This document shows, one piece after another, positions 40,477 through 59,381 of a DNA stretch of 64,000 nt. A program made the position numbers and the translations under genes. Numbering within the stretch: position 1 is the stretch's first letter; each line of letters begins with the position of its first letter. The notes under the pieces were generated by a model. It saw only the letters and a program-made list of their open reading frames with translations, ran no database searches and was not told the origin of the DNA. This stretch comes from a virus: the IMG/VR virus record IMGVR_UViG_3300044675_005321, positions 1 to 64,000 of that record; one strand, written 5' to 3'.

Positions 40477-41244
40477 ATGAAAACTAATGAAATTTATCAT
40501 GGTGATTGTCTTGATTTGCTACCTAGTATTCCTAGTAAATCTGTTGATATGATCCTTTGTGATTTGCCTTATGGTACAACGGCCTGCGAGTGGGATTCTA
40601 TTATTGATATGACTAGACTTTGGCAGGAGTATGAGAGAGTGATTAAGGATAACGGCGCTATCGTTTTGACGGCCTGCAACGAATTCACTTTTGCTTTGTA
40701 CAATAGCAATCCAAAGATGTTTAAATATCGGTGGATATGGAAGAAGTCATTGGCTACCGGATTTCTCTTAGCAAAGAAGCAGCCTATGAGGAATTTTGAG
40801 GATGTACTTGTCTTTTACAAGAAACAGCCGACATATAATCCTATTTCCTTCAGAAAGGGGAAGAGTGAGCATAGAGATGTGAATATGAAGCATATTGATT
40901 GCAATGTTTATGCTCAAAATAGGCTAAAAAGAAAGGTAGCAAATGAAGATAGATTGCCAACTACGATTTTAGAATTTCAATCCGCAAATACTGGATCAAG
41001 CATTAACATAACAATCCATCCAACACAAAAGCCGGTTGCATTGTTTGAGTACCTAATCAAGACCTACACCAATGAAAATGAGTTAGTCTTAGATAATTGT
41101 AGCGGTAGCGGTACAACGGCCATCGCGTGCATGAATACCAATAGAAGGTTTATTTGCATTGAGAGGGATGAAACCTATCACCGCAAGAGCATTGAGAGAA
41201 TGAACAACCATGAACCACTATTCCATTTGGGGGATAAATGCTAG
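40477..41244 (+). CDS. DNA methyltransferase, array gene 1
   Basis: 255 residues, an amino-methyltransferase of beta layout (catalytic motif before the AdoMet motif). Catalytic motif: CDLPYGTTACEWDSI (near 30-44). AdoMet site: LDNCSGSGTTAIAC near 214-227. HPTQKPVALFEYLIKTY (motif X region) precedes it. The centre (about 70-185) is unlike its neighbours and would be the target-recognition part. The ATG at 40477 is chosen over an upstream TTG by comparison with paralogues. A 60-nt block (40579-40638) is identical to gene 4 (42862-42921). It ends ATGCTAG, overlapping gene 2. No cognate nuclease is visible. Confidence 0.9.
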   Translation: MKTNEIYHGDCLDLLPSIPSKSVDMILCDLPYGTTACEWDSIIDMTRLWQEYERVIKDNGAIVLTACNEFTFALYNSNPKMFKYRWIWKKSLATGFLLAKKQPMRNFEDVLVFYKKQPTYNPISFRKGKSEHRDVNMKHIDCNVYAQNRLKRKVANEDRLPTTILEFQSANTGSSINITIHPTQKPVALFEYLIKTYTNENELVLDNCSGSGTTAIACMNTNRRFICIERDETYHRKSIERMNNHEPLFHLGDKC

Positions 41245-42108
41245 AAGAAAACAAGATACATTTAGGCGATTGCCTTGACCTTATGCCGTCCATTCCCAGT
41301 AAATCGGTTGATATGATCCTTTGCGATTTGCCTTATGGGACAACGGCTTGCGAGTGGGATTCTATCATTGACATGTCTAAACTTTGGCAAGAGTATGAAC
41401 GAGTGATCAAAGATAATGGGGCTATCGTTCTGACAGCATCATCATATTTTACTTTTAAACTTTGGCAGAGCAATATTCGACTATTTAGATATAAGATTGT
41501 ATGGAATAAGAGATTAAAAGTGGGCTTGTTTGACGCAACAAGAAGACCAATGAGACAGCATGAAGATATTTTAATTTTCTATAAAAAGTCGCCTTGTTAC
41601 AATCCACAAATGACTTTATCAGATACGGCTTACTCTATGAAAGCCGGTCAAAAAGTGCATCCTAAATTTCAAAAAGATCCTATTTTTACACAAGAAAAGA
41701 AAGACGTAAAAACAAGATATCCATCGGATATCATACAAATAGATTCAGCGAACTTAACAAGAGAACGAGGACTACACCCAACGCAAAAACCTGTAGCATT
41801 GTTTGAGTATCTAATCAAAACCTATACAAACGAGAACGAACTAGTCTTAGATAATTGTAGCGGTAGCGGTACAACGGCCATCGCGTGCATGAACACCAAT
41901 CGCCGGTTTATCTGCATTGAGAGAGATGAAACATATCATCGCAAGTCAATTGAGAGACTGGCAAATCATGAACCTTTATTGCACATGGGGGATAAATGCT
42001 AGAAGAAAACAAGATACATTTAGGCGATTGCCTTGACCTTATGCCGTCCATTCCCAGTAAATCGGTTGATATGATCCTTTGCGATTTGCCTTATGGGACA
42101 ACGGCTTG
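41228..42108 (+). repeat. Identical 123-bp direct repeat across methyltransferase borders
   Basis: The 123 bp at 41228-41350 and 41986-42108 are identical, covering the end of one gene, the overlap ATGCTAG and the first 113 bases of the next. Genes 2 and 3 also share 74 identical bp at their 3' ends (41901-41974 and 42662-42735). Synonymous sites are identical as well, which means recent duplication or gene conversion. Confidence 0.9.
41238..42002 (+). CDS. DNA methyltransferase, array gene 2
   Basis: 254 residues with the same architecture: HLGDCLDLMPSIP, DLPYGTTACEWD, then a distinct centre (SSYFTFKLWQSN through KDVKTRYPSDIIQID), then HPTQKPVALF and DNCSGSGTTAIACMN. Its first 123 bp including upstream (41228-41350) are identical to gene 3 (41986-42108). 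The last 74-nt coding segment (41901-41974) is identical to gene 3 (42662-42735). Its start overlaps gene 1's stop by 7 bases. The target base (N6-A or N4-C) cannot be decided from motif DLPY alone. Confidence 0.9.
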   Translation: MLEENKIHLGDCLDLMPSIPSKSVDMILCDLPYGTTACEWDSIIDMSKLWQEYERVIKDNGAIVLTASSYFTFKLWQSNIRLFRYKIVWNKRLKVGLFDATRRPMRQHEDILIFYKKSPCYNPQMTLSDTAYSMKAGQKVHPKFQKDPIFTQEKKDVKTRYPSDIIQIDSANLTRERGLHPTQKPVALFEYLIKTYTNENELVLDNCSGSGTTAIACMNTNRRFICIERDETYHRKSIERLANHEPLLHMGDKC

Positions 42109-42763
42109 TGAATGGGACAGCATCATTGACATGGCTAGGCTTTGGGCTGAGTATGAACGAGTGATTAAGGATAATGGAGCTATTGTTTTGACGGCTAACT
42201 CAGTATTCACCTTTAAACTTTATAACTCAAATCCCAAAATCTTTAAATACAAACAAGTGTGGGATAAAATTATAAAAGTTGGGCACTTGTCAGCAAATAG
42301 AATACCCATGCGACAACATGAGGATGTTTTATTATTTTGCAGGGGGACGCCTCCTTATTTTCCACAAATGTCAAAAGGTGCACCATATACTATGAAGAGA
42401 AACAATAGAATGGAATCTGTGGCTTACTTAGGAGGATCAGCAACGAAAAGAAGTGATACAAATAATAACGGAGAACGATATCCTTCAGATATTATACAAA
42501 TAGCATCTGCGGTATTCTCAAAAGATAAAGGGCAACACCCAACACAAAAGCCAGTAGCCTTGTTTGAGTACCTAATCAAAACCTATACCAACGAAAACGA
42601 GCTAGTCTTAGATAACTGCTCAGGCAGTGGCACCACCGCCGTTGCCTGCATAAATACAAACCGCCGGTTTATCTGCATTGAGAGAGATGAAACATATCAT
42701 CGCAAGTCAATTGAGAGACTGGCAAATCATGAACCACTATTGCACATGGGGGATAAATGCTAG
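41996..42763 (+). CDS. DNA methyltransferase, array gene 3
   Basis: 255 residues, the same ends as gene 2 and a different centre (NSVFTFKLYNSNPKIFKYK through GERYPSDIIQIAS). The stretch GSGTTAVACINTNRRF carries the AdoMet motif. It overlaps both neighbours by 7 bases at ATGCTAG. The junction sequence with GGGGGATAA before each start is repeated at all three gene borders. Confidence 0.9.
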   Translation: MLEENKIHLGDCLDLMPSIPSKSVDMILCDLPYGTTACEWDSIIDMARLWAEYERVIKDNGAIVLTANSVFTFKLYNSNPKIFKYKQVWDKIIKVGHLSANRIPMRQHEDVLLFCRGTPPYFPQMSKGAPYTMKRNNRMESVAYLGGSATKRSDTNNNGERYPSDIIQIASAVFSKDKGQHPTQKPVALFEYLIKTYTNENELVLDNCSGSGTTAVACINTNRRFICIERDETYHRKSIERLANHEPLLHMGDKC

Positions 42764-43518
42764 AAGAGAATAAGATCCACCTTGGCGATTGCCTTGACCT
42801 CATGCCATCCATTCCCAGTAAATCGATTGATATGATCCTTTGCGATCTTCCCTATGGAACGACGGCCTGCGAGTGGGATTCTATTATTGATATGACTAGA
42901 CTTTGGCAGGAGTATGAGAGAATTATCAAGGACAACGGCGCAATTGTTTTGACGGCCAATAATGTCTTTACTTTCAAGCTATGGTCAAGCAATCCAGCGC
43001 TTTTTAGATATAGATGGATTTGGATCAAGAGTTTAAAAACTCAATTTCTCAATGCAAATAGAAGACCTTTATCGCAATTTGAGGAAGTGATGATTTTTTA
43101 CAAAAAACAGCCAAAATATAATCCTCAAATGCAAGATGGCAAAGCATATAAAATAAGTAATGAGAAATCTTCAATCGGTGGCAAGAGTGCCTACGGTGAT
43201 GAAAAACTGGTTAGAATTCCAACAGTCAATAATGGTGAATACTTTCCCAGTGATATCTTAGAATTTTCAAATGAGATAGGATTTCATCCAACACAGAAGC
43301 CGGTGGCCTTGTTTGAGTACCTAATCAAAACCTATACCAATGAAGGCGAAATCGTACTTGATAATTGCAGCGGTTCAGGGACTACAGCGATAGCGTGTTT
43401 AAATAGCAATAGGCAATTTATTTGCATGGAGAAAGACGAAACCTATTATAAAAGATCACTTGATAGACTAGCTAATCATGAACCTCTCTTATATTTTACA
43501 AACCACAATGAAAACTAA
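42757..43518 (+). CDS. DNA methyltransferase, array gene 4
   Basis: 253 residues. N-terminal block as genes 1-3, a unique centre (NNVFTFKLWSSNPALFRYRW through GEYFPSDILEFSNEIG) and a C-terminal block (DNCSGSGTTAIACLNSNRQF) that at DNA level is closer to the distant gene at 58362 than to its neighbours. It is the last of the tandem array. This mosaic suggests recombination between the two methyltransferase loci. Confidence 0.9.
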   Translation: MLEENKIHLGDCLDLMPSIPSKSIDMILCDLPYGTTACEWDSIIDMTRLWQEYERIIKDNGAIVLTANNVFTFKLWSSNPALFRYRWIWIKSLKTQFLNANRRPLSQFEEVMIFYKKQPKYNPQMQDGKAYKISNEKSSIGGKSAYGDEKLVRIPTVNNGEYFPSDILEFSNEIGFHPTQKPVALFEYLIKTYTNEGEIVLDNCSGSGTTAIACLNSNRQFICMEKDETYYKRSLDRLANHEPLLYFTNHNEN

Positions 43519-43580
43519 GAAAGAAAATTAAAAAGTTTTTTGTTTACTATGTGATCCATTTTAAAAGAAAGTGAGACAAC

Positions 43581-43973
43581 ATGGATGATTTACAAAGAAC
43601 GCTTATGATTGAAGAGATGCTTGAACGTGGTGAAGTGTATGAAGGTTATAGGGACAATAAACATTTCACGCTTGAGCATAAGCGCTTTTATAACAAATGC
43701 ACGAAAGAACGCTTCTTAAGTGAGTTCTCTTACGATTTGACTTGGCGGGAGATTGCATCAAGGCTAGGCATAAGCCAATATGCAGCGCGGGAACTTGGTA
43801 CTTATTATGGCGTCGGTAAGAAACAATTGAAAAAGAATAGAACTGTGACAGATGAACAGATCATTGAGGCGTTCAAAGAGTACCCTAAAAAATCGATCAA
43901 AGAACTCAAGGATGATTTACAATTGTGCTTCTCTACTGTTTGGCGTCGTGCTAAAGAACTAGGACTAATATGA
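43581..43973 (+). CDS. DNA-binding protein with two helix-turn-helix segments
   Basis: 130 residues. TWREIASRLGISQYAARELG (near 54-73) reads as a helix-turn-helix, and SIKELKDDLQLCFSTVWRRA (near 104-123) as a second. It follows the methyltransferase array and starts a three-gene group whose members overlap by four bases (ATGA). It is a candidate regulator of the phage's early or late genes. Confidence 0.7.
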   Translation: MDDLQRTLMIEEMLERGEVYEGYRDNKHFTLEHKRFYNKCTKERFLSEFSYDLTWREIASRLGISQYAARELGTYYGVGKKQLKKNRTVTDEQIIEAFKEYPKKSIKELKDDLQLCFSTVWRRAKELGLI

Positions 43974-44329
43974 TCAAGGATATTCCGCCCAAATTATTTG
44001 ATGAGTTTGATTTTTCTTTTGTTGAATACGGTAATGAAGATTTATCAGATCCAGAGATCATCAAGAATCAAATCAACCTTCGTTTCTACATGCTTGAGAG
44101 ATACATGCATGAGAAAACAGAAGAACAAGTAGTAAAAGAGATTAATGATTTAGCTTCTTTTATCTTGTATTTGCCCTATCAAGCAACCAAATTGACATTT
44201 AATCAAAAAACATACTTCTATTGTATCTTAGAAGGTTGCAGGCATTATCGTTGGTATTTTGGACTAACAAAAGAAGAAAAATTAAATTTGAGAAAAACCT
44301 ATCTTGCCTCTTTTGGAATAAGAAAATGA
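43970..44329 (+). CDS. Unknown helical protein
   Basis: 119 residues, mostly helical and acidic at the start (PPKLFDEFDFSFVEYGNEDL), with an aromatic centre (YFYCILEGCRHYRWYFG). Coupled by ATGA overlaps to the regulators on both sides, so it may act with them. Not recognised. Confidence 0.6.
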   Translation: MIKDIPPKLFDEFDFSFVEYGNEDLSDPEIIKNQINLRFYMLERYMHEKTEEQVVKEINDLASFILYLPYQATKLTFNQKTYFYCILEGCRHYRWYFGLTKEEKLNLRKTYLASFGIRK

Positions 44330-44907
44330 AAACAAATATCCGAATGGACGGCGAGCGCAAGAATATTTTTGAAATCTTGGCCTTGCTTGATTGGGAACCA
44401 GATCAAAGACTCATGGATTTAGAAGAAAAATTAATGAATGGTTACTTTGATCAAAAGAGAAAAAGAACTAAAAGATATGTAGAACCAAAATTCACTAAGG
44501 CCGAATTAAAAAAATTATGTGCTCAACAAATACCTTGGGGGCAAATTGCAGAGAAGCTAGGGGAATCCGTAATACGTGTACGGGATTACGCACAAAGAAA
44601 CGGTATTACAAATCATATATCTGTTGGCAGACCTAAGATTATAGATGCACAAGAAAAGATGGCTAGTCGTATTAGATATTATGATCGTATTTCACCTTCT
44701 GAAGAGAAGATTGATCAGCTCATGATCTTGTATGGGGGGTTCATTGGCCTACTTGCATTTAAACTAAACAAACCTTTTAGAATAGCAAGAAATGTGCTGA
44801 TACATAGAAAGCGATATGATGCTTGGCTAAAGTATAATTATTATCTAGGGCGCGGCGGTAGGCCTAAGACTCTTGAAGAAATTAGAGCAAAACAAAATGA
44901 TCAATAA
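44326..44907 (+). CDS. Helix-turn-helix DNA-binding protein
   Basis: 193 residues from the ATG at 44326 that overlaps the preceding stop (ATGA). IPWGQIAEKLGESVIRVRDYA reads as a helix-turn-helix near residues 68-88, with a Lys/Arg-rich segment before it (QKRKRTKRYVEPK). The C-terminus is basic. It is distantly like the protein at 43581 in this motif. Function probably regulatory. Confidence 0.6.
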   Translation: MKTNIRMDGERKNIFEILALLDWEPDQRLMDLEEKLMNGYFDQKRKRTKRYVEPKFTKAELKKLCAQQIPWGQIAEKLGESVIRVRDYAQRNGITNHISVGRPKIIDAQEKMASRIRYYDRISPSEEKIDQLMILYGGFIGLLAFKLNKPFRIARNVLIHRKRYDAWLKYNYYLGRGGRPKTLEEIRAKQNDQ

Positions 44908-44952
44908 TATAGAGAAACTAAGCGCCTTATTATATATCAAACTAGCTACTTT

Positions 44953-47544
44953 TTAAATGATACAAGCCCCGCCGGCGCATGCTAGTTCTTGCGCTTGTAT
45001 TGTTTCATCTGTACCCTCTAAAACGCTATCAAAATCAACGGCGTTGCTTGATCTAAGAGATACCCATAAATCAAATGCGTCTGATCGATCTTGCTTCTTT
45101 TGGCGTGCTCGCTCTAAGTCTTTTTCTAGTGTTGTCTTTGATTTGTGTGTCTCATATGCTTGTTCGATTTGTTCAACCTCTTCAAAGTACATATTTTGAT
45201 TTTCTACATGATCATAGACCGCTCTAAATGGGGGCTGTTGGTAGTCATAATCCCCGCTCATTCCTAAGAAAGATACACCGCAAAAATATTCTTGATTATC
45301 AAAGACAAATTCGCCCGCTTCTTCCCACTCATGGGGGCGAACGTTGCAAGTGTTTGAAACATTGTGATCAGAACCCTCAAGGGACTTAGGGCGTGCGTTC
45401 CCATTCTTTACCCACGAATTATAGACCATTTTAACAAGTGATAAGAATTCAGTAGCTTTGAGATCGTTTTTAAACAAGTTTTCGGGGTTGCATTCTACAG
45501 CAAAGATCAAACATTTATCTGTCCCATTCGCCGCCCATACACTATTTTTCACCGCTTGGGGGTTTAGTTCCTCAAACTTTTGAACAAGTGCAGAATCCGC
45601 GGGAACTTGTACATGTCTTAAAAATCTTCTTGAGTGTTCGGGATGGATACCAGACGCACAACCAAGGATCACCGAAGCTGTCCCGCTAGGTTTAACACAT
45701 GTAATTCTTGCAGCTTGATTGATACCGATCTTCTTTGCAAATTGCTTATTGATCACGATTGCAAATTCAGCCAGTGATTTAAGTAAAAAGGCCGCTCTAT
45801 CCTCTTCATGCTTGAAAAAGAATGCTGAATTTGCAAGGCCAGTCAATGACACACCTAGCAACGCTTCACGCTCAACGATTTGTTCAGATACCGGCCCTAA
45901 ATATTCTGATTTAGTGTAACTTGCTTGAAGGGTGCCCAGCTTTACAGCGTTCTTCACCGCTACATAGAACGCATCAATTGAGTCAATAGAGAAATCTTTA
46001 AACTTAGATGCGTTAACCTCTGTCAAATTGCATGCTTGCCAACCGCTTTGAAATGTATAGCCTTGATCTTCATATTTGGATCTATTTTCGGGGTTGATCA
46101 AGTCTAATGTGTACTCTTCAACAATTTGCCCTTCTTTGTCCTTGATGAGCATAGGACACATAGAAATTTCAACGCAATTATGAACCACTACACCATTAGC
46201 AATGAAACTATGTGTTTTGTTTTCTGTAAGATCGTAGACTTCTTCTTTCACAACAAAATCAAAAGAGACTACGGGGGAAACTCCTACATTTGAAACATTG
46301 TCATCTAGTACTACATGCACAAGATCACCAGGCAACAAATCGCCAGCCTCAATCCATCCTTTAGACGTCATGATTTGATGGTTTCTAGTACATTCTACAA
46401 AGTATCCATTTTCTAAACTCAATCGGTACACGTCTTGAATACCGGTACAGAACACGCCCTTATCGGTACTCTCTGAAAAAGTACCTTGTTTGAATCGGGG
46501 GTCAATTCTCAAAGAAGTTTTCTGATTCTCCTCAAACAATTGCTTAGCAGTCTTATAACCTTCAGCAGTCAAGATCTTTGTTCTACCGCTAACGCATGGG
46601 TTGAAACAGAATTCTGTTGACTCTGTAAACACAAAACCAGGTTCACCCCATTGAGGCACATTATCAAGAAACTTTTTCATAAAATCTTGTTTGTCAAGTT
46701 TATTTTTCAATGCTACCGCAGAAATATTAGCACGTGCACGATATGGCGCTTCTTTCCACCAATTACCGGTTTTCGCTGTCCACATATCCGCGTCATCCAT
46801 GCTAAAAATTGCAATGGTAGCGCTTCGACGCACGCCACCGCTTAACACGCAATCAGATGCAATACAAACAATATCTAAACAATCAATGCTTCTTAGTTTT
46901 TGCCCAGCCCTTGAAACAAGTATCTTTTCAATCATTTGTAAACTGAATTTTAGGGGAATAGGCCCAGGCGCTTTACCCCCATGGGACAGCGCCGCGCCTT
47001 TCTTTCTGATCAAGGAATAGTTAAAGATGGGCATTGTATCAGATTGACCGAGATAGAATTGAATAAGGGCATCAAGCGCATCAGCCCAGCCCTCAATCGT
47101 ATCTTTGATCATGATAACTTTCATTTGTGCATTGTTGATTTGATCAGATGAGATCACAGGGGGCAATTTTGAAATATGGTGCTTCTGTACAGAATAACCA
47201 ACGCCACAGCCACACAATAGCAACCACAATGACTCAGCAAAGAAGCGGGGGCGATCACAAAATGACGTTGTACAATTGAAAATACGCCAAGGCTTGTCAA
47301 GAATTGCCTTCCCTCCGAATTGTAAAGATCTTTGAGAACCTAAGATCTCTTTGCGCTTTAGTGCATCTTCAATCTCGTTCAAATCCTCATAGATTTCAAT
47401 GGTATCGATGAACTTTGTTGCATGCATATTCATCAGCCGATCTACAGATTCAGACCAGTTTTCACGGCGCTTTTTAGATGGTAAATACTTTGCATATGTT
47501 TGCTTGAATGTGAAATTTGCAAGATTGTTGCGTTGAATATCCAT
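44953..47544 (-). CDS. nrdJ: Class II (B12-dependent) ribonucleotide reductase with mini-intein
   Basis: 863 residues from the ATG at 47544, which follows GGAGGA; an in-frame ATG at 47559 overlaps that RBS. It reduces ribonucleotides to deoxyribonucleotides using adenosylcobalamin. Features: FNCTTSFCDRPRFFAESLWL near 89-108 with the first redox Cys, LCGCGVGYSVQ, the active-site NPCVEI split by an intein, and GASGIHPEH-like IHPEHSRRF near 630. The layout is that of single-chain enzymes with a C-terminal Cys pair (CAGGACII). The intein (residues about 317-456) removes itself to restore NP-CVEI. Together with dCMP deaminase and ThyX it supplies dNTPs. Confidence 0.92.
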   Translation of the reverse strand: MDIQRNNLANFTFKQTYAKYLPSKKRRENWSESVDRLMNMHATKFIDTIEIYEDLNEIEDALKRKEILGSQRSLQFGGKAILDKPWRIFNCTTSFCDRPRFFAESLWLLLCGCGVGYSVQKHHISKLPPVISSDQINNAQMKVIMIKDTIEGWADALDALIQFYLGQSDTMPIFNYSLIRKKGAALSHGGKAPGPIPLKFSLQMIEKILVSRAGQKLRSIDCLDIVCIASDCVLSGGVRRSATIAIFSMDDADMWTAKTGNWWKEAPYRARANISAVALKNKLDKQDFMKKFLDNVPQWGEPGFVFTESTEFCFNPCVSGRTKILTAEGYKTAKQLFEENQKTSLRIDPRFKQGTFSESTDKGVFCTGIQDVYRLSLENGYFVECTRNHQIMTSKGWIEAGDLLPGDLVHVVLDDNVSNVGVSPVVSFDFVVKEEVYDLTENKTHSFIANGVVVHNCVEISMCPMLIKDKEGQIVEEYTLDLINPENRSKYEDQGYTFQSGWQACNLTEVNASKFKDFSIDSIDAFYVAVKNAVKLGTLQASYTKSEYLGPVSEQIVEREALLGVSLTGLANSAFFFKHEEDRAAFLLKSLAEFAIVINKQFAKKIGINQAARITCVKPSGTASVILGCASGIHPEHSRRFLRHVQVPADSALVQKFEELNPQAVKNSVWAANGTDKCLIFAVECNPENLFKNDLKATEFLSLVKMVYNSWVKNGNARPKSLEGSDHNVSNTCNVRPHEWEEAGEFVFDNQEYFCGVSFLGMSGDYDYQQPPFRAVYDHVENQNMYFEEVEQIEQAYETHKSKTTLEKDLERARQKKQDRSDAFDLWVSLRSSNAVDFDSVLEGTDETIQAQELACAGGACII
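46177..46596 (-). other. Mini-intein in ribonucleotide reductase
   Basis: 140 residues inserted in the catalytic NPC/E motif. It starts with Cys (CVSGRTKILT, block A), has block B GYFVECTRNHQIMT with the T-x-x-H, then block F VYDLTENKTHSFIANGVVVHN and ends in HN followed by Cys. No homing endonuclease domain fits in the space, so it is a mini-intein that cannot spread by itself. Extein residues FCFNP and CVEISM flank it. Confidence 0.9.
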
Positions 47545-47619
47545 GTTTATTTCCTCCATGGTTTACAGTGATGAAAGTTCCTAAGTATAAATCTTTAAAT
47601 ATGTGTAAACAATTTTATT

Positions 47620-48061: not shown

Positions 48062-48889
48062 CTAGAAGTTATCATCACCAAATAAATTATATAAATTTGA
48101 TACTCTTTTATTAGCAATAGCTGCATATTCTGGATTTATTTCACTAGAAATAAAATTTCTTTTTAATTTTAGGCACATTTTAGCTGTGGTCCCACTCCCC
48201 ACAAAGGGATCATAAACTAAATCCCCCTCATTACTCCAAGAAAAGAGGTGATCTTCTACTAACTTCTCAGGAATTATAGCAGGATGTGAAAAGGCAAAAT
48301 TATCTTTGGTAGAATGCCCCTTACCTACATTATATTCCCATACATTAGTTCTTCTACCATACTTTTGATATCCTCCCCTAGGATGCTTATATAATTGACC
48401 AGAATGTAGTCTTTTTGTACCAGAATCACCCTTTCGCTCTTCTTTATTCTCCCTATCACAGATTAAGTTTATTGTCTTGGGTTTACCCTTACTAAAAACA
48501 AACATATATTCAAAAGTTTGCCAATATCCTTGATTATTACCACATGCACCTCTGGGTTTTTTCAGGTATATCATTGTATCAAATAATCCAAAACCTATCT
48601 GTTTAAAGTATAAAGCTTGTTTAAAAGATGAACCAGATTCATCCCAATTTGTAGTCTGATCACCCACCACCCAAACAACAACTCCCCCAGATTTAGTAAC
48701 TCTATATAAGCTAGTTATGATCCGCTCAATATCAATCTTAAAGTTACCATCATAGTATCTCATATTGTCATATGGAGGTGATGTTATTGTTAAATCTAAA
48801 AAATCACTAGGCATTCTATTCATTGTACATATACAATCCTCTATATAAACTTTATTTAGTTCTAGTGGAATATCATTAGTACTATGCAT
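48062..48889 (-). CDS. DNA methyltransferase, SPPY type, unrelated to the array
   Basis: 275 residues. TSPPYDNMRYYDG (near 36-48) is the catalytic motif of N4-cytosine or some N6-adenine methyltransferases; YDPFVGSGTTAKMCL (near 233-247) binds AdoMet. The order makes it a beta-class enzyme. It differs from the six DLPY paralogues in sequence and the gene looks richer in A and T than its neighbours, which suggests separate acquisition. AAGGAG lies upstream. No nuclease partner is visible, so it is likely an orphan protecting phage DNA. Confidence 0.88.
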   Translation of the reverse strand: MHSTNDIPLELNKVYIEDCICTMNRMPSDFLDLTITSPPYDNMRYYDGNFKIDIERIITSLYRVTKSGGVVVWVVGDQTTNWDESGSSFKQALYFKQIGFGLFDTMIYLKKPRGACGNNQGYWQTFEYMFVFSKGKPKTINLICDRENKEERKGDSGTKRLHSGQLYKHPRGGYQKYGRRTNVWEYNVGKGHSTKDNFAFSHPAIIPEKLVEDHLFSWSNEGDLVYDPFVGSGTTAKMCLKLKRNFISSEINPEYAAIANKRVSNLYNLFGDDNF

Positions 48890-51363: not shown

Positions 51364-51915
51364 TTACTTATCTTCTTTTGATAAAGACTCATAGTCTAAT
51401 TCGTTGATTACTTTTTTGCTAAGTCCTGAATCACATAGACCCCAAGTCAAACAGCCGCTTAGGTATTCTTCTTCAAATAGTTCAAGCTGATCATCGTTTT
51501 TCAAGGCCCAGTCTAGAACCTCATCCACATTTCCACGCTTGAAAAAAGAGTAAACCGCATCTTTGCGCCCTTTTTGTTTGGCGAGCTCTTTTACTTCTGT
51601 CTCAAGCTGTCTAATACGCTCAAAGCGTTCGGGCGATTCATGGTATGCGTGCTTGATTTCTGATTTGCGGGCAAAGATGCAAGGGAAACAGCCAACACGT
51701 GAAAAACCTCTTGTATATAAAGGATTCGGCGCAACATTAAATCTTTTGTGAATTGCGATTACGTCGTCAACAGTCCATTCAATCAAGGGGCGCCAGATTG
51801 TACTTTCATCTTTTTCCTCAAACGCACCTAGTTTGCTTCGTGCTTGGCTTTCTTCTTTGCGAATACCTACAGCGCTCACAGGTTTCTTTTTATACTTTGC
51901 CCGTACGTCATCCAT
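51364..51915 (-). CDS. PAPS reductase-like protein, C-terminal part (out of frame)
   Basis: 183 residues as an open frame. It continues the gene at 52252: the frame is open upstream from 51915 to the G tract at 52009-52017, encoding VIRTCTLELKVAP before the first ATG. RVGCFPCIFARK holds a Cys pair, as in phage members of the PAPS reductase / PP-loop family. If the tract had eight rather than nine G, one protein of about 290 residues would result. As written it would be translated only by slippage or from an internal ATG without a clear RBS. Confidence 0.75.
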   Translation of the reverse strand: MDDVRAKYKKKPVSAVGIRKEESQARSKLGAFEEKDESTIWRPLIEWTVDDVIAIHKRFNVAPNPLYTRGFSRVGCFPCIFARKSEIKHAYHESPERFERIRQLETEVKELAKQKGRKDAVYSFFKRGNVDEVLDWALKNDDQLELFEEEYLSGCLTWGLCDSGLSKKVINELDYESLSKEDK

Positions 51916-52252: not shown

Positions 52253-52286
52253 TTGTCCTCCTAGGTCAATTCTTGATTAGGTTCAC

Positions 52287-52327
52287 AAAGTACTTCATCG
52301 ATTACACATTGTCAATAAATTTTACAA
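52287..52327 (-). promoter_or_regulatory. Early promoter with dyad operator, PAPS reductase-like gene
   Basis: Minus strand: TTGTAAAATTTATTGACAA with -35 TTGACA (52315-52310), a 17-nt spacer and TACTTT (52292-52287). The dyad is identical over 19 bases to that at 51306. The downstream CTAATCAA differs from the leader of other members. Confidence 0.72.
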
Positions 52328-52394
52328 ACGTACTATGATCTTTTGATTGATACATATAAGCATAGTTCATAAAATCAAAGAGAAAGGATCCATC

Positions 52395-53211: not shown

Positions 53212-53763
53212 ATGATAGCCAGCGAATACTATGACTTATTAGAGGCGTCTGAGTGGCACATATCAAACCTAGATACATTTCTAAGAGAACTACAGGGCGG
53301 GGCAACATTGAAAAACGCCGGCATCTTAGCGGAGTACACGCCAAAGCAAATTAAAAAGATAGAAAGTATCTACGCGCAATTTTGTAATGATGAGCTTGAT
53401 GAACCATCGATAGAATTTATCGTAGGTTTCTATGTCTCTAAAGCTGTAGCGTATAGAGATAAAAGATGGATAGGTTTTGTAGAGGCCGGAGGCAAACAGG
53501 CGAGCGCCGGCATGTGGCTATTAGAACGCCGCGTAGGTGGTGAATTTGGCGCACCAGTTCAAAAAGTACAGCAAGAAATCAAAGCGGGGGTTATGTACTC
53601 AAGCGTTCAAGAAGCAATAGAGGCCACGCAAAAGAAACTAGGTATCAAACAGATTGAGGAACAGGGGGACTATTGGGCAAAGCTACAAACAGCCGCCGCG
53701 TTGTCTCAAGAATTGCCCGTATTGCCTATTGAGGCACACCCTAAAAAAGATCCTCAACCATGA
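53212..53763 (+). CDS. Possible terminase small subunit
   Basis: 183 residues. The N-terminal part has a helix-turn-helix-like stretch (GGATLKNAGILAEYTPKQI), followed by a helical oligomerisation-like part and ASAGMWLLERRVGGEFGAP, a motif seen in small terminases (A-x-W-L-L-E-R-R). It would bind packaging sites and guide the large subunit. AAGGGAG precedes the start. The palindromic element directly upstream is a plausible target. The large subunit is 15 kb away on the other strand, so the call is tentative. Confidence 0.55.
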   Translation: MIASEYYDLLEASEWHISNLDTFLRELQGGATLKNAGILAEYTPKQIKKIESIYAQFCNDELDEPSIEFIVGFYVSKAVAYRDKRWIGFVEAGGKQASAGMWLLERRVGGEFGAPVQKVQQEIKAGVMYSSVQEAIEATQKKLGIKQIEEQGDYWAKLQTAAALSQELPVLPIEAHPKKDPQP

Positions 53764-53876
53764 TCAAAAATTGCATAGTGAAATATGAAACTTGTTATCA
53801 TGCTCTAGATTGCTTTAAAACCTATCTAAAATCAATGATACGCCCTTTGGGAATAGGTGGACTAGGCAAACATTAA
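53760..53876 (+). CDS. Small basic protein, uncertain
   Basis: 38 residues starting inside the stop of the preceding gene (ATGA), so it could be translationally coupled. It has three Cys near the N-terminus (KNCIVKYETCYHALDC). There is no good RBS and no known family. It may be spurious. Confidence 0.35.
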   Translation: MIKNCIVKYETCYHALDCFKTYLKSMIRPLGIGGLGKH

Positions 53877-53906
53877 CTAAATAAAACTGATCGAGAATTA
53901 GCGCAT

Positions 53907-54629
53907 ATGAAAAAGAGATATAGTACAAGAGACTTCTTGAAACCTAAGAGCACATGCGAAGGAGCGTTAATAGCGACTAGGCGTGCTCTTGCTGATTGTG
54001 AGGTTCGGGGATGGTTGGCTGACGATATAGGCGTATCATATTCAAAGTTTTGTGAATACCTATCCACATATGATGATAATGCAAATATACTTAAAACATG
54101 GGCTAAACATTGGGATATGTCGCCGAATGTGCTTCAAAAAATAGTGTTCATTGATCCATCAATTCCCAGTATACTAAAAACAACTAGGATGACAGACATA
54201 AAAGCATCACAAGTACTTTCTAATCTTAAATTTTGCGTCTCTATTGTTCATAGAAACCTTAATCAATCAATTGATGATCAAAAGATTGCAATTCGCAAAT
54301 GGACAGGGTTAAATAGTGAATATGCAATACTAGCCCCCAGCCTCTACCATTGTTCAGAAGCTTTGATTGATGCTAGTATTGATGAGGGCGCTTGTGAATG
54401 CCATATTGATGAACGCATCTTATTTATGGTAGCAACATGGGGCGGGTGGCAAATACGAGCGGAAATTGATCATTGGTTGACGAATGTAGCTACGATTTAT
54501 AGGGGCGTATCTCTTGGGTACTACCCAACAGATATGCAAGTTGAATTTACTGAATGTTCGATGAGAAAGGCGCCGATCGATGCTATTGAGAAATATAAGC
54601 TTGATCAAGTGAAAAAGATTTTCATTTAA
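53907..54629 (+). CDS. Unknown protein with possible DNA-binding N-terminus
   Basis: 240 residues. WLADDIGVSYSKFCEYLSTYD near 36-56 could be a helix-turn-helix of a regulator. The centre is helical and includes WTGLNSEYAILAPSLYHC; the end is rich in Lys and Ile (YKLDQVKKIFI). Weak RBS. A role in regulation is a guess. Confidence 0.55.
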   Translation: MKKRYSTRDFLKPKSTCEGALIATRRALADCEVRGWLADDIGVSYSKFCEYLSTYDDNANILKTWAKHWDMSPNVLQKIVFIDPSIPSILKTTRMTDIKASQVLSNLKFCVSIVHRNLNQSIDDQKIAIRKWTGLNSEYAILAPSLYHCSEALIDASIDEGACECHIDERILFMVATWGGWQIRAEIDHWLTNVATIYRGVSLGYYPTDMQVEFTECSMRKAPIDAIEKYKLDQVKKIFI

Positions 54630-54691
54630 ATTACTGTGTGAAAGATAAATCTTGTAGAAAGTGTTAACACTTCACTAAAACAGGAGAAATT

Positions 54692-54991
54692 ATGAAAAAG
54701 ATCAAGCCAGTACATAGGCAATTGGTACACTTAGACCGCCCGCAAACAGCTATCTTGAAACTGATTGCTATGATGGGCGAAGTATCACAGAAAGAAGCTA
54801 TCACAGCTATTTTCAACATGGGATTAGGCGCACTACTCAAGGCAATCAATGAAAACGATGATATCCAGTTTTTAGCTACGCTCAAGACCTATGGTAAAGA
54901 TGAAACAACCAACCTTCTTTTTACAGAACTTTTTAAGCTTAGCGACTCAAGGAAGGCAACCAATGAACGCACTGAATCAGACAAAACTTGA
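54692..54991 (+). CDS. Small helical protein, possible regulator
   Basis: 99 residues. A strong AGGAG precedes the start. HRQLVHLDRPQTAILKLI followed by VSQKEAITAIFNMGLGALL resembles a ribbon-helix-helix or antitoxin-like layout, but this is weak. The next gene starts inside its end. Function unknown. Confidence 0.55.
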   Translation: MKKIKPVHRQLVHLDRPQTAILKLIAMMGEVSQKEAITAIFNMGLGALLKAINENDDIQFLATLKTYGKDETTNLLFTELFKLSDSRKATNERTESDKT

Positions 54992-55565
54992 GCTATTCGA
55001 GTTTCTTTGTTGCAAAGACCATCTAGAAGAAGAAAAACCTATGAGAAATAGAACACTATATGAGGATCTAAACAACGAATTAGCGGCGTCAAAAGATATC
55101 GCTGATCTTTGTGAACGATCATCAATTTTACTAGCAAATATCATCAAGCTTGCAGACAACCCCGATGCACTTGATATCTTTACAAAACAAGCTGAAGTTC
55201 TAAGCTATATGTTCAAAGATATGGCTTACAAATGCCCTAAAAAGGCGATTCGTTCAATGGTATCAGAATGGATTAGGGAAGAAAAAACACTACGTGAAAT
55301 GGCTGATTTGCTCAATCAACAAGGCTTGACCACACACACCGGCAAGATGTGGACTCATGCGCTTGTGGCGTATGCTTTTAAAGATTTGTTCGAGGCAAAC
55401 AAAACCAATCCCGCGCAAGTGAGCGCCCCATTACGTGCAAAAGAATTGAGAGATCGGGGATGGACACTAGACGCAATCGCCCACGCCCTCAATGACGAAG
55501 GTTTCAGCACGCTACGGGGTGGGGCGTATTCTTCAGGCACTGTGCATCACCTACTAAAGGATTGA
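54963..55565 (+). CDS. DNA-binding protein with two resolvase-type recognition repeats
   Basis: 200 residues from the ATG at 54963 (AGGA at good spacing) inside the end of the previous gene. Two related segments, LREMADLLNQQGLTTHTGKM and LDAIAHALNDEGFSTLRGGA, have the pattern I-A-x-x-L-N-x-x-G-x-x-T of the DNA-binding tail of serine recombinases. No catalytic domain is present. It is likely a sequence-specific DNA binder. Confidence 0.65.
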   Translation: MNALNQTKLELFEFLCCKDHLEEEKPMRNRTLYEDLNNELAASKDIADLCERSSILLANIIKLADNPDALDIFTKQAEVLSYMFKDMAYKCPKKAIRSMVSEWIREEKTLREMADLLNQQGLTTHTGKMWTHALVAYAFKDLFEANKTNPAQVSAPLRAKELRDRGWTLDAIAHALNDEGFSTLRGGAYSSGTVHHLLKD

Positions 55566-55566
55566 T

Positions 55567-55707
55567 ATGAACGCTATTATGATTGCTAGTCTTGGACTAC
55601 TAAGGCAAATTGCTGAACCTATTTTAAGAGAAGATGCAACCATTCAACAACAAGTACTTGAGTTCTTAGATACCTTGATCAAGCGACTTGCGGGAGATAT
55701 TGAATGA
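55567..55707 (+). CDS. Small protein in coiled-coil gene cluster
   Basis: 46 residues with AAAGGA five bases before the start and an ATGA overlap with the next gene. It is helical and amphipathic (IASLGLLRQIAEPIL, QVLEFLDTLIKRLAG). The tight packing in the operon supports it as a real gene. Function unknown. Confidence 0.55.
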   Translation: MNAIMIASLGLLRQIAEPILREDATIQQQVLEFLDTLIKRLAGDIE

Positions 55708-55943
55708 AGATCAAAGATCAGATACAAGAACTAAGAGAACAGATCGCACGCTTAACAATGCATCTTGTCAATAAGAATGAAGTACTTAGAGAACAGGCCT
55801 CTGAAATTGCGAAGGTTCAAAAAGAGCTATGTGCGCTAAGCGCTTCAGTTGATACGCAAACAACCCGTATTGATGCCTTGCTTATCATGTATCAAGGTAT
55901 CACCATCCCAAAAGACTTGAGCAAACTAAAGAAAGAAGGTTAA
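55704..55943 (+). CDS. Coiled-coil protein
   Basis: 79 residues, almost entirely heptad coiled coil (IKDQIQELREQIARLTMHL onward), with IDALLIMYQGITIPKDLSKL at the end. It resembles the next gene in layout (coiled coil, IEALNTLFHFTRQDIKDLSA), suggesting an old duplication. The function is unknown. Confidence 0.6.
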   Translation: MKIKDQIQELREQIARLTMHLVNKNEVLREQASEIAKVQKELCALSASVDTQTTRIDALLIMYQGITIPKDLSKLKKEG

Positions 55944-55945
55944 TC

Positions 55946-56134
55946 ATGGGAGTAAAAAGAGACATTGATGATCTACAGAATGAGATTGCTAAGGTTCAAA
56001 GAGATCTAAGTGATCTAATCGATGCACAAAACAAAAGAATTGAGGCCTTGAACACTTTGTTTCATTTTACTAGACAAGATATCAAAGATCTAAGCGCAAA
56101 GATTCCAAAAGAACCAACAGGACAAGATCAATGA
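55946..56134 (+). CDS. Coiled-coil protein, likely paralogue of its neighbour
   Basis: 62 residues: DIDDLQNEIAKVQRDLSDLI is a coiled coil, and the C-terminal ALNTLF, DIKDLSAKIPK matches the corresponding part of the preceding protein. It overlaps the deaminase gene by four bases (ATGA). A hetero-oligomer with its neighbour is possible. Confidence 0.58.
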   Translation: MGVKRDIDDLQNEIAKVQRDLSDLIDAQNKRIEALNTLFHFTRQDIKDLSAKIPKEPTGQDQ

Positions 56135-56607
56135 AGTCCGAGCACTTAAAGCAACGAATGAATCAAGTTTTAGTACTTGCTGAAAGTTCAAGATGCCCCC
56201 GTAAAAAGTTCGGTTGTTTGATCATTGACCCCTTGAATAATCGTGTGATTAGTGACGGATGGAATGGAGCGCCAAAAGGGCCAGAGCGCCTATGTGGCAA
56301 TGAAGTGTGTGCCCGTGATCAAGCCTCAATTCAAAGCGGTTCAAGCCCTCATATTGGTTGTCACCATGCAGAAATGAACGCTATTTGTAACGCCGCTTCT
56401 ATGGGTACCAGCACGAAAGGCGCTTGGGCTATTGTCAATGGCGAACCTTGCCTTATGTGCGCTAAGATGCTTCATCATTCGCTCATTGCTACTGTGGTAA
56501 TCATTCGGGGGGCTTACCTTGGCGCACAGCTTACAGGAGATGCAGGCGTCCAGTATCTACTTGATCATAGTATCAATGTAATTTTTGAAAGGATTGAACA
56601 TGGTTGA
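56131..56607 (+). CDS. dCMP deaminase
   Basis: 158 residues of the zinc cytidine-deaminase-like fold. GCHHAEMNAI holds the zinc His (H79) and catalytic Glu (E81); EPCLMCAK gives Cys107 and Cys110. A second Cys/His set (C22, C55, C60, H74) is typical of dCMP deaminases with an extra zinc. It turns dCMP into dUMP, the substrate of ThyX encoded at 49337. Confidence 0.92.
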   Translation: MKSEHLKQRMNQVLVLAESSRCPRKKFGCLIIDPLNNRVISDGWNGAPKGPERLCGNEVCARDQASIQSGSSPHIGCHHAEMNAICNAASMGTSTKGAWAIVNGEPCLMCAKMLHHSLIATVVIIRGAYLGAQLTGDAGVQYLLDHSINVIFERIEHG

Positions 56608-56860
56608 TTTTTTATATAGTTTCAATGGTTGCGTTTTTATTACGGCGCTTCTGTACTTGCTCATATGGATTTTGAAGCTTGTCCACGAACTACGATTTGT
56701 ACACATTGGCGCCCTTCGCATGTTCGCTTTATGCGTGTTACTAGGTTTCTTTGTGTACTTCTTATTCATGCTTAGTTTACGAGCGCCGGCGATCATTGCG
56801 TCTTTCATGTTTGTTAATATGATCATCGGTGCGTTGGAAGGTGAGGGCAATGAAAACTAA
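56600..56860 (+). CDS. Small membrane protein
   Basis: 86 residues from the ATG at 56600 behind AAAGGA. Three hydrophobic segments are visible: CVFITALLYLLIWILKLV, LRMFALCVLLGFFVYFLFML and IIASFMFVNMIIGAL. It overlaps the deaminase end and the start of a methyltransferase. It could be a holin or exclusion protein; no evidence favours either. Confidence 0.6.
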   Translation: MVDFLYSFNGCVFITALLYLLIWILKLVHELRFVHIGALRMFALCVLLGFFVYFLFMLSLRAPAIIASFMFVNMIIGALEGEGNEN

Positions 56861-57857
56861 TTGCGTTTATCATGGTGATTGTCTTGATTTGTTGCCTAGC
56901 ATACCGAGTAAATCTGTTGACATGATACTTTGTGATCTTCCGTACGGGACTACAGCTTGTGCGTGGGATTCAATTATCCCTTTAGATAGGTTATGGAGAG
57001 AATACGAACGAGTAATCAAGGATAATGGGAACATTGTTTTAACCGCTCAAGGTATGTTCGGGGCTAAGCTAATGACTTTCAGAGAAACATGGTTCAATCA
57101 TGATTATGTATGGATAAAGAACCAACATTCAAACTTCGCTTTAGTAGGTATCCAGCCACTACGTATCTTTGAAAATGTACTTGTATTCAGACCACCAAGA
57201 AAAGACGATATAGATAGAGCATTTAACAAAGAACTAAGGGCATATTTCAAGCAAGTAAATGAGTTCATAGGTTTAAATAGATCACAGATAGAACAGATCA
57301 TAGGAAATAAGGGCTATCATCATTCTTACGGCGTGACGGGTTGTCAATTTGAACTATGCACACAGAAAACATATGAACAATTGATCGAGTGTTTCAAGAT
57401 TGACCAGATGCAGGGCTATTTGAACTTTGAAACTTTGCAATCTATGAAAGAAGAATTGATTCCTTTTACTTTTAACTTTGATGATCGTATTAAAAGTACA
57501 AAGCAAGCAAAGAAAGATGCTTTTGGAAGTACTGACACTTTAGGCAATTGCGCAAAAGATTACAAAGAACACACAAGCAAAGAATACGAAAACTATCCAA
57601 GAAATACGCTATATTTTGACTGTGAACGAGGACAACACCCAACACAGAAACCGGTATCACTATTTGAATATTTAATAAGAACCTATTCAAATGAAAATGA
57701 AGTAATCTTAGACAATTGCAGCGGTTCAGGGACTACAGCGATTGCGTGTTTAAATAGTAATAGGCAATATATTTGCATAGAAAAAGATGAAACCTACTAC
57801 AAAAAATCACTTGAGCGCATAGCTAATCATGAACCCTTGTTAAACTTAGGACAATGA
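56850..57857 (+). CDS. DNA methyltransferase, paralogue 5 (long form)
   Basis: 335 residues. N-terminal HGDCLDLLPSIPSKSVDMI and CDLPYGTTACAWDSI match the tandem array. The centre is longer (about 75-255) and shared with the gene at 58362 (KNQHSNFALVGIQPLRIFEN, FRPPRKDDI), but the inner parts differ (GLNRSQIEQIIGNKGYHHSY against GLTAEKIAKIIGHMGYHHSY). The C-terminus has HPTQKPVSLFEYL and DNCSGSGTTAIACLN. ATG 56850 is preceded by GGTGAGGG. Target specificity is probably different from genes 1-4. Confidence 0.9.
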   Translation: MKTNCVYHGDCLDLLPSIPSKSVDMILCDLPYGTTACAWDSIIPLDRLWREYERVIKDNGNIVLTAQGMFGAKLMTFRETWFNHDYVWIKNQHSNFALVGIQPLRIFENVLVFRPPRKDDIDRAFNKELRAYFKQVNEFIGLNRSQIEQIIGNKGYHHSYGVTGCQFELCTQKTYEQLIECFKIDQMQGYLNFETLQSMKEELIPFTFNFDDRIKSTKQAKKDAFGSTDTLGNCAKDYKEHTSKEYENYPRNTLYFDCERGQHPTQKPVSLFEYLIRTYSNENEVILDNCSGSGTTAIACLNSNRQYICIEKDETYYKKSLERIANHEPLLNLGQ

Positions 57858-57858
57858 A

Positions 57859-58035
57859 ATGTATGGCAGTCATTTATTAGTTCGCTTATTGATTAGTGAA
57901 ACATGCATCTTAGATATCTGTGAGCGTTTAGAGCGTGTGCATTGCCTCATAGATCAAGAAGTCATAGACAGAATACGAGCGCTTGAAACCACGTACCAAG
58001 GGCGGGCAACGAAAACAATTTTATTGATGCCTTAA
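57859..58035 (+). CDS. Small protein between methyltransferases
   Basis: 58 residues starting two bases after the preceding stop, behind AGGA (57848-57851). It is helical with Leu, Arg and Cys (LLVRLLISETCILDICERLE). No family recognised. The RBS and fit between the genes support it. Confidence 0.5.
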   Translation: MYGSHLLVRLLISETCILDICERLERVHCLIDQEVIDRIRALETTYQGRATKTILLMP

Positions 58036-58090
58036 ATTTGAGAATGTTGCTTGAAACTTATATACTTGTACTTGATCAACAGGAGTATAC

Positions 58091-58372
58091 ATGAACAAGT
58101 TTGAAAAGATAGCAATTGACCTATCAACCATTTTATCTATGAAGAATGAGGCCTATGGAAACGCTTTTGACAAGACAACACAGATACTCACGCTTCTTTA
58201 TCCTCATGGAATCAAAGTAGACCAGTACAAAGATATTCATGTCATTGTTCGTATGCTTGATAAGCTGTCAAGGATTGCAAGAGACAATGACCCAATGGGG
58301 GAAAGTCCGTATATGGACATTGCAGGATATTCTATTTTGGCACTTGCTAGGGATGAGAACAATGAGAACTAA
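58091..58372 (+). CDS. DUF1599-type nucleotide-modification-associated protein
   Basis: 93 residues. The pattern K-N-E-A-Y-G-N-A-F, then DIHVIVRMLDKLSRIA and ESPYMDIAGYSILAL, fits the DUF1599 (Nmad1-like) family, which is found near phage genes for modified nucleotides. The exact reaction is not known to me. An AGGAG precedes the start and the end overlaps a methyltransferase by 11 bases, so both are made together. Confidence 0.75.
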   Translation: MNKFEKIAIDLSTILSMKNEAYGNAFDKTTQILTLLYPHGIKVDQYKDIHVIVRMLDKLSRIARDNDPMGESPYMDIAGYSILALARDENNEN

Positions 58373-59381
58373 TTGCGTGTTGCATGGTGATTGTCTTGAC
58401 TTGTTGCCAAGTATACCCGATAAATCGATCGATATGATACTTTGTGATCTTCCGTACGGGACTACAGCATGTTCATGGGACTCTATCATCCCTTTAGATA
58501 GGTTATGGGCTGAGTATGCAAGAGTGATCAAAGATAATGGGAACATTGTTCTGACAGCTCAAGGCATGTTTTGTGCAAAGCTTATGACATTCAAAGAAAC
58601 ATGGTTTAATCACGATTACGTGTGGATAAAGAACCAACATTCAAACTTCGCTTTGGTAGGTATCCAGCCACTACGAATCTTTGAAAATGTACTTGTATTC
58701 AGACCACCAAGAAAAGACGATATAGAGAGGGCATTTAACAAAGAACTAAGGGCATATTTCAAGCAAGTAAATGATTTCATAGGTTTGACGGCTGAAAAGA
58801 TAGCAAAGATAATAGGCCATATGGGTTACCATCATTCTTACGGCGTTAATGGTTCACAGTTCGCACTATGTACAAAAGAAACCTATGATCAATTAATTGA
58901 GTGTTTCAAGATTGACCAGATGGACGGATACTTGACCTTTGAAACTTTGCAATCTATGAAAGAGAAACAATTTAACGCACCATATACTTTTAATTTTGAT
59001 GACCGTATAAGAAGTACAAAACAGACAAAGAGTAATGATTTTAATAGGCAGATGTATGGAGACAAAACAAATCAAAAATACAAAGGGCATATAAGCAAAG
59101 AATATGAAAACTACCCAAGAAACACGCTATATTTTGATTGTGAAAGGGGTATGCATCCAACACAGAAGCCAGTAGCGTTGTTTGAGTATTTAATAAGAAC
59201 CTATTCAAATGAGAATGAAGTTATCTTAGACAATTGTTCAGGTTCAGGGACAACAGCGATAGCGTGTTTAAATAGCAATAGGCAATTTATTTGCATGGAG
59301 AAAGATGAAACCTATTACAAAAGATCACTTGAACGCATAGCTAATCATGAACCCTTGTTAAACTTGATCAATGAGAAATAA
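58362..59381 (+). CDS. DNA methyltransferase, paralogue 6 (long form)
   Basis: 339 residues, sister of the gene at 56850. The start at 58362 gives an N-terminus equal to the paralogues (MRTNCVLHGDCLDLLPSIP). DLPYGTTACSWDSI and DNCSGSGTTAIACLN are present. Stretches around 58620-58710 are nearly identical at DNA level to 57108-57198, and the 3' end (about 59250-59330) nearly equals that of array gene 4 (about 43370-43460). This links both loci by recombination. Confidence 0.9.
   Translation: MRTNCVLHGDCLDLLPSIPDKSIDMILCDLPYGTTACSWDSIIPLDRLWAEYARVIKDNGNIVLTAQGMFCAKLMTFKETWFNHDYVWIKNQHSNFALVGIQPLRIFENVLVFRPPRKDDIERAFNKELRAYFKQVNDFIGLTAEKIAKIIGHMGYHHSYGVNGSQFALCTKETYDQLIECFKIDQMDGYLTFETLQSMKEKQFNAPYTFNFDDRIRSTKQTKSNDFNRQMYGDKTNQKYKGHISKEYENYPRNTLYFDCERGMHPTQKPVALFEYLIRTYSNENEVILDNCSGSGTTAIACLNSNRQFICMEKDETYYKRSLERIANHEPLLNLINEK

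What the first reader, a model, noticed from the sequence alone, without database searches (positions are those of the whole stretch)
40477..59381. Six paralogous methyltransferases with conserved catalytic blocks and swapped centres
Four tandem genes (40477, 41238, 41996, 42757) and two distant ones (56850, 58362) encode the same DLPYGTTAC catalytic and DNCSGSGTTA AdoMet blocks around different central regions. Some flanking blocks are identical at DNA level including synonymous sites: 123 bp shared by genes 2 and 3, 74 bp shared at their ends, 60 bp shared by genes 1 and 4, and near-identity of the 3' ends of gene 4 and the gene at 58362. The tandem borders all use the same 7-base ATGCTAG overlap. 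This looks like a cassette system in which homologous ends recombine to renew specificity regions, giving the phage many methylation patterns against restriction. Orphan phage methyltransferases are known; I do not know a described array of this kind.
Basis: partly seen in the sequence, partly recalled or inferred. Interest (0 to 1): 0.88.

Follow-up and report, generated by a model that had tools for sequence, protein, structure and literature searches.

The report
Phage methyltransferase arrays with swapped centres
This phage carries six copies of one DNA-methylating enzyme that keep the same catalytic ends but have exchanged their DNA-reading centres by recombination, with each other and with unrelated phages, and some relatives that match exactly on both sides of the genes carry quite different sets, so these genes probably act as a fast-changing defence against bacterial restriction enzymes.

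Summary
Six intact beta-class adenine-type methyltransferases (PF01555, PHROG 67) share catalytic blocks (N 73-96%, C 77-97% aa identity) around divergent centres (g1-g4 34-44%; g5/g6 a long, 77% identical pair; 16-18% between the two sets). The exact repeats and 7-bp ATGCTAG overlaps are as stated. A seventh, divergent methyltransferase exists.

Recombination is shown, not only inferred. Synonymous divergence switches inside the blocks. A 443-450 bp piece of g4 covering its centre is 99-100% identical to methyltransferases in other phage contigs whose ends differ; several contigs of that lineage lack matches to this phage's terminase, capsid and polymerase. g5's counterpart at the same genomic site has 89% identical flanks and a 47% identical centre. 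In relatives arrays hold 1-4 genes; loci identical over 1.5-2.5 kb upstream (and 99.8% downstream) carry different arrays. Of 36 locus pairs with at least 98% identical upstream flanks, 25 differ in the first centre.

A 43-44% identical relative, lactococcal M.Phi145I, methylates GGWG-m6A and blocks HphI, supporting an anti-restriction role. The mechanism resembles target-recognition-domain movement in Helicobacter restriction systems; a phage-borne orphan tandem array looks new. Motifs and recombinase remain unknown.

The parts
40477..41244 (+). methyltransferase g1 (centre type T2); N block 40477-40674, centre 40675-41016, C block 41017-41244
   Evidence: PF01555 E 3e-30; 5' end closest to the single-gene relative L102 (80%/162 bp), first part of centre 97% to L034 over 188 bp
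41238..42002 (+). methyltransferase g2 (centre type T12); N 41238-41438, centre 41439-41774, C 41775-42002
   Evidence: PF01555 E 5e-32; 77% aa identical centre in L251, a phage contig with 69-71% identical terminase
41996..42763 (+). methyltransferase g3 (centre type T3); N 41996-42196, centre 42197-42535, C 42536-42763
   Evidence: PF01555 E 7e-29; 123-bp and 74-bp exact repeats shared with g2
42757..43518 (+). methyltransferase g4 (centre type T0); N 42757-42957, centre 42958-43284, C 43285-43518
   Evidence: PF01555 E 2e-27; C-terminal end like the single-gene relative L102 (82%/157 bp)
42901..43350 (+). segment of g4 exchanged with other phages, borders inside the N and C blocks
   Evidence: 3 mismatches in 450 bp to L030 (99.3%) against about 70% outside; 42820-43262 is identical to L014
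41238..41244 (+). ATGCTAG gene overlap g1/g2
   Evidence: direct sequence; the same kind of join in ten other contigs
41996..42002 (+). ATGCTAG gene overlap g2/g3
   Evidence: direct sequence
42757..42763 (+). ATGCTAG gene overlap g3/g4
   Evidence: direct sequence
56850..57857 (+). methyltransferase g5 (long centre, type T1); N 56850-57047, centre 57048-57635, C 57636-57857
   Evidence: PF01555 E 1e-24; at the same site in L037 the flanks are 89% identical, the centre is a different type at 47%
58362..59381 (+). methyltransferase g6 (long centre, type T1); N 58362-58559, centre 58560-59153, C 59154-59381
   Evidence: PF01555 E 2e-24; at the same site before the portal gene L037 carries type T4 and L094 type T13
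48062..48889 (-). seventh, divergent PF01555 methyltransferase; related protein, not part of the block-sharing set
39341..40453 (+). beta sliding clamp-like gene, upstream anchor of the four-gene site
   Evidence: DNA_pol3_beta_2 Pfam hit; same neighbour in L011/L104 and L102
43581..43973 (+). small HTH protein downstream of the array; homologues recur beside methyltransferase arrays of the other phage lineage
58091..58372 (+). small gene that precedes g6 here and precedes the methyltransferase arrays of the other lineage
   Evidence: 78-94% aa in relatives

Best explanation
The six genes are orphan beta-class N6-adenine methyltransferases whose conserved N-terminal (catalytic motif IV) and C-terminal (AdoMet motif I) blocks act as homology arms. 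Homologous recombination in these blocks replaces the central target recognition domain (TRD) and also inserts or removes whole genes in a translationally coupled tandem array joined by a 7-bp ATGCTAG overlap. Donors are the other copies in the genome and other phages, probably during co-infection. Each TRD class probably gives a different methylation motif, so the phage modifies its DNA at several motifs and can change the set quickly to escape host restriction. Shown: block structure, recombination borders, TRD sharing between phage lineages, array turnover between identical flanks. Inferred: that the centre reads DNA, the adenine target, different motifs, translational coupling, the anti-restriction purpose, the recombinase used.
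For: Blocks and breakpoints within the genome. g4 segment 42901-43350 is 99.3% identical to L030 and 42820-43262 100% to L014, with flanks about 64-70% identical. Contigs G006, G007, G009, G011 and G013, of the lineage carrying the L030-type site, give no match to the window's terminase, capsid or polymerase (they are partial). Site-matched swaps: g5 versus L037 flanks 89%, centre 47%; g6 versus L094 80% and 51%. Array turnover: L012 (T0-T3) versus L022 (T2-T6-T1), 2499 bp upstream 100% and 1500 bp downstream 99.8%; 25 of 36 pairs with at least 98% identical upstream flanks differ in the first TRD. Across 62 methyltransferases N and C distances correlate at 0.59 but each with the TRD only at 0.27-0.32; 21 pairs share a TRD with different flanks, 12 share flanks with different TRDs. 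Outer ends of the window array match the single gene of L102, inner joins match the other lineage. Family function: M.Phi145I, 43-44% identical to g1-g4, GGWG-m6A, blocks HphI (PMC4190342). Profile matches the m6A enzymes RsrI, MboIIA and CcrM.
Against: No motif has been measured, so different TRD sequences could still read the same motif (g5 and g6 may). Tested relatives are only about 44% identical. No phage recombinase was recognised. g2 against L251 shows nearly uniform divergence, so some genes spread as whole genes. Structure predictions were too poor (pLDDT 48 and 38) to show the centre as a separate TRD.
Confidence: 0.8

Rival explanations
1. A dedicated diversification system: the array is an archive of cassettes that a phage-encoded machinery shuffles at raised rate within one phage population, like invertible hsdS loci or a diversity-generating retroelement.
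For: Very high turnover between identical flanks, constant 7-bp joins, several copies in one genome.
Against: No reverse transcriptase, resolvase, tyrosine integrase, RecT, ERF or RecA family in the record; no convincing inverted repeats; all copies intact and in one orientation; borders scatter inside homologous blocks instead of at one site.
Confidence: 0.1
2. Exchange is real, but the methylation serves another purpose than escaping host restriction, such as marking phage DNA against a phage nuclease, regulating late genes or competing with other phages.
For: Motifs and hosts are unknown; the record also carries nucleases (PD-(D/E)XK, RecU-like).
Against: No restriction endonuclease among the neighbours examined; a relative protects DNA from restriction (PMC4190342); rapid turnover of specificity fits an arms race better than self-marking or regulation.
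Confidence: 0.13
3. Old paralogues that diverged under uneven constraint: conserved motifs stayed, centres drifted, without recombination.
For: The blocks contain catalytic motifs under constraint; g2 versus L251 diverges almost uniformly.
Against: Identity includes synonymous sites and switches inside blocks; centres 99% identical between phages with different flanks.
Confidence: 0.03
4. Assembly artefact: short-read metagenome assembly joined different variants into false arrays and chimeric genes.
For: All key records are metagenome contigs; many contigs end inside these genes.
Against: Ten contigs from ten different metagenomes carry the join; L022 and L024, and L014 and L015, repeat the same arrays independently; the longest exact repeat in the window is 123 bp; all six window ORFs are intact.
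Confidence: 0.04

Closest known systems
[quoted passage not shown] Furuta, Kobayashi and colleagues; PMC3983042, PMC7379913)
   Same: Centres that read DNA move between genes and loci, with conserved parts kept; repertoire differs between close strains.
   Different: Here: phage genes, orphan small beta-class methyltransferases with no restriction partner, tandem arrays of 1-4 copies with overlapping joins, exchange between phage lineages.
Orphan phage methyltransferase M.Phi145I / M.Phi93I of lactococcal 936-type phages (PMC4190342)
   Same: Same family and block layout, DLPYGTTAC motif IV, 43-44% identity to g1-g4; N6-adenine; protects DNA against a restriction enzyme.
   Different: One copy of this family per phage in those genomes; the passages read describe no arrays or centre exchange.
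Multispecific cytosine methyltransferases of Bacillus phages (SPR, phi3T; own knowledge)
   Same: Phage gains several specificities through modular TRDs.
   Different: Several TRDs in one C5 enzyme; here one TRD per protein, adenine-type family, several proteins.
Type I systems with duplicated, distinct hsdS specificity genes that switch by recombination (PMC7394358)
   Same: Specificity parts recombine between copies.
   Different: Those are bacterial loci with reversible switching; here all copies are full genes in one direction in a phage.
Shuffling of protein fragments in phage proteins (PMC10684548)
   Same: Recent domain exchange within phage proteins tied to host interaction.
   Different: That survey's main text does not mention methyltransferases.

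Membership tests
Beta-class DNA N6/N4 methyltransferases (PF01555, PHROG 67) | Pfam/PHROG profile match over the whole protein | tested here: met
   all six, Pfam E between 5e-32 and 2e-24
Beta-class DNA N6/N4 methyltransferases (PF01555, PHROG 67) | Motif order IV (DLPY), then variable region, then motif I (AdoMet, DNCSGSG) | tested here: met
   profile aligns to RsrI, MboIIA and CcrM
Beta-class DNA N6/N4 methyltransferases (PF01555, PHROG 67) | Methylates adenine | not testable with these tools
   only by relatives: M.Phi145I (PMC4190342)
Orphan phage methyltransferase | No partner restriction endonuclease next to the gene | tested here: met
   neighbours are clamp, HTH protein, RNR, dCMP deaminase-like, portal; not every ORF of the record was searched
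Orphan phage methyltransferase | Protects phage DNA against restriction | not testable with these tools
   shown for a 44% identical relative only
TRD movement | Same TRD in different flanks, different TRDs in the same flanks | tested here: met
   21 and 12 pairs
TRD movement | Borders in sequences coding for conserved motifs | tested here: met
   g4 borders at about 42901 (N block) and 43350 (C block)
TRD movement | New TRD changes the methylated motif | not testable with these tools
   needs SMRT or nanopore methylation data
Invertible phase-variable specificity locus | Inverted repeats and a site-specific recombinase | tested here: not met
Diversity-generating retroelement | Reverse transcriptase in the record | tested here: not met
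   no RVT_1; variants differ by whole segments and length
Multispecific C5 methyltransferase | Several TRDs in one cytosine-C5 enzyme | tested here: not met
   one centre per protein, PF01555

The most novel reading that the evidence does not exclude
A modification-repertoire generator: phages of several lineages share a common pool of interchangeable DNA-reading centres and keep growing and shrinking coupled methyltransferase arrays, so that a phage population carries many methylation patterns at once and adapts to the restriction enzymes of its hosts by swapping cassettes rather than by point mutation.
Probability: 0.4. Interest if true: 0.85.

Novelty: new variant of a known kind. Interest (0 to 1): 0.72.

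Why it matters
It would show that phages match the fast specificity change of bacterial restriction systems with the same trick on their own side, and across phage lineages. It gives a natural library of compatible TRDs on one scaffold, useful for learning which residues set methylation motifs, and a direct test of arms-race dynamics: compare array content with the restriction enzymes of co-occurring hosts. For scale, a marine survey reports 1.09 methyltransferases per viral genome in its catalogue (PMC9516812), against seven in this 67.6-kb record.

Tried and rejected
Structure prediction of g4 and g5 from shallow alignments gave pLDDT 48 and 38, so no fold search was run. Promoter scan of the array was at chance level. 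Reverse transcriptase, resolvase, integrase, RecT, ERF and RecA families were sought in the record and not found. Inverted repeats were weak. Polaribacter phage P12002L, with three places, was checked: its methyltransferases are spaced and 26-49% identical, not a block-sharing array. Host assignment was not possible: terminase and portal relatives among named phages are below 37% identity. The paper on TRD movement between non-orthologous proteins (PMC3467074) is not held. Literature searches found no described phage array of this kind, but the held library is partial.
Full report
WHAT WAS CHECKED. The window is most of a 67,646-base virus record. Each matches PF01555 and PHROG 67 along its length. 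The exact repeats are right: 123 bp from 41228 in g2/g3, 74 bp in g2/g3 C blocks, 60 bp in g1/g4, 53 bp in g4/g6. The three tandem joins are all ATGCTAG. A seventh, divergent member of PF01555 sits at 48062-48889 on the minus strand.

ANATOMY. Order of motifs is IV (DLPYGTTAC), variable centre, HPTQKP block, then AdoMet motif I (DNCSGSGTTA): the beta-class layout, in which the target recognition domain lies in the centre (established knowledge of the class; the profile aligns nearly end to end with RsrI, MboIIA and CcrM). Amino-acid identities: N block 73-96%, C block 77-97%, centres 34-44% among g1-g4 and 16-18% between those and g5/g6; g5 and g6 are 77% identical in the centre. g5 and g6 carry an extra stretch of about 85 residues in the centre.

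RECOMBINATION INSIDE THE GENOME. Using only the conserved blocks, runs of identity between gene pairs exceed permuted data (global P<0.001 for the N block, 0.001 for the C block). Synonymous differences switch inside blocks: g2-g3 0.00 to 0.65, g1-g4 0.79 to 0.25, g4-g6 0.70 to 0.21. Conserved function alone cannot do this.

EXCHANGE BETWEEN PHAGES. Related loci were fetched from IMG/VR. The piece 42901-43350 of g4 differs at 3 of 450 positions from a methyltransferase in L030, and 42820-43262 is identical to one in L014, while the rest of the genes is only about 64-70% identical. The long contigs that represent the lineage of L030 (G006, G007, G009, G011, G013) give no match to the window's terminase, capsid or DNA polymerase (these contigs are partial). 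The first part of g1's centre is 97% identical over 188 bp to L034, the rest is not, so borders can also lie inside a centre. Conversely g2 resembles the gene in L251 about evenly, so whole-gene descent or transfer occurs too.

SAME SITE, DIFFERENT CENTRE. Between the clamp gene and the ribonucleotide reductase gene the window has four short genes, L011/L104 two, and L102, whose terminase is 98% identical, one long gene. At the site before the portal gene, L037 carries short types T6 and T4 and L094 type T13 where the window carries long types. g5 and its counterpart in L037 share 89% of flanks and 47% of centre. The outer ends of the window's array match L102's single gene, and the inner joins match the other lineage, which suggests the array grew by inserting modules between the ends of one ancestral gene (inference).

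TURNOVER. In the other lineage arrays of 1, 2 and 3 or more genes sit at one site. L012 (T0-T3) and L022 (T2-T6-T1) are identical over 2499 bp upstream and 99.8% over 1500 bp downstream; L013 (T0-T0-T1) and L009 (T3) share the same upstream flanks at over 99%. Local alignments stop at the centres and resume in the blocks. L014 and L015 share their two genes (99.3%), but L015 continues into a further gene where L014 ends the array. Of 36 locus pairs with at least 98% identical upstream flanks, 25 have first centres under 75% identical and 10 have centres at least 95% identical. Pairs are not independent, since loci recur in several pairs. Over 62 genes, N and C distances correlate at 0.59, centre with N at 0.32, centre with C at 0.27. 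The tandem join, searched as an exact degenerate pattern, occurs in ten contigs of ten metagenomes in 2.9 million contigs, so arrays of this form look confined to these phages. In L168/L169 two such genes are fused in one 594-residue frame.

FUNCTION. M.Phi145I of a lactococcal phage has the same blocks and is 43-44% identical to g1-g4. It was reported to be tied to GGWG-m6A and to protect DNA from HphI (PMC4190342). The likely role is protection against restriction, with one motif per centre class. This is inference from a relative; no motif is known here.

HOW EXCHANGE HAPPENS. No reverse transcriptase, resolvase, tyrosine integrase, RecT, ERF or RecA was found, and no good inverted repeats. 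The record has a PD-(D/E)XK nuclease and a RecU-like resolvase. Homologous recombination by host or unrecognised phage proteins is the simplest reading.

KNOWN OR NEW. TRD movement is known in Helicobacter Type I, III and IIG genes (PMC3983042, PMC7379913). Orphan phage methyltransferases are known. A tandem array of orphan phage methyltransferases trading centres across phage lineages was not found in the held literature, which is partial. Verdict: a new variant of a known kind, with well-supported recombination and an inferred function.

Noticed in passing
44953-47559 (-): B12-dependent ribonucleotide reductase-like gene that appears to carry an intein (PF14890 Intein_splicing); the match to it is split in relative L011.
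   Followed up: partly
136-1752 and 61247-62257: Two otherwise different proteins share the same N-terminal module (K-A-[ML]-THKYIRRVPKGVTKTGKTKY), another sign of module exchange in this phage.
   Followed up: no
L168:1077-2861 (also L169, L175): Two methyltransferases fused in one 594-residue frame; the linker reads like a frameshifted C-terminal end, so a single indel at the overlap may have fused them.
   Followed up: partly
43581-43973: Small HTH protein whose homologues (one or two copies) sit beside methyltransferase arrays in a different phage lineage; possible regulator of the array.
   Followed up: partly
54891-55565: Protein with a Recombinase (PF07508) DNA-binding domain; no resolvase catalytic domain was found in the record.
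   Followed up: partly
51364-51915 (-): PAPS reductase-like protein with weak similarity to SspD and BrxP models; 81-85% identical in the other phage lineage, so possibly also exchanged.
   Followed up: no
L100 and L151 (record IMGVR_UViG_3300042507_004311): Both ends of this 65.8-kb contig lie inside the methyltransferase gene at the g6 site, suggesting a circular genome broken there by variation or repeats.
   Followed up: no
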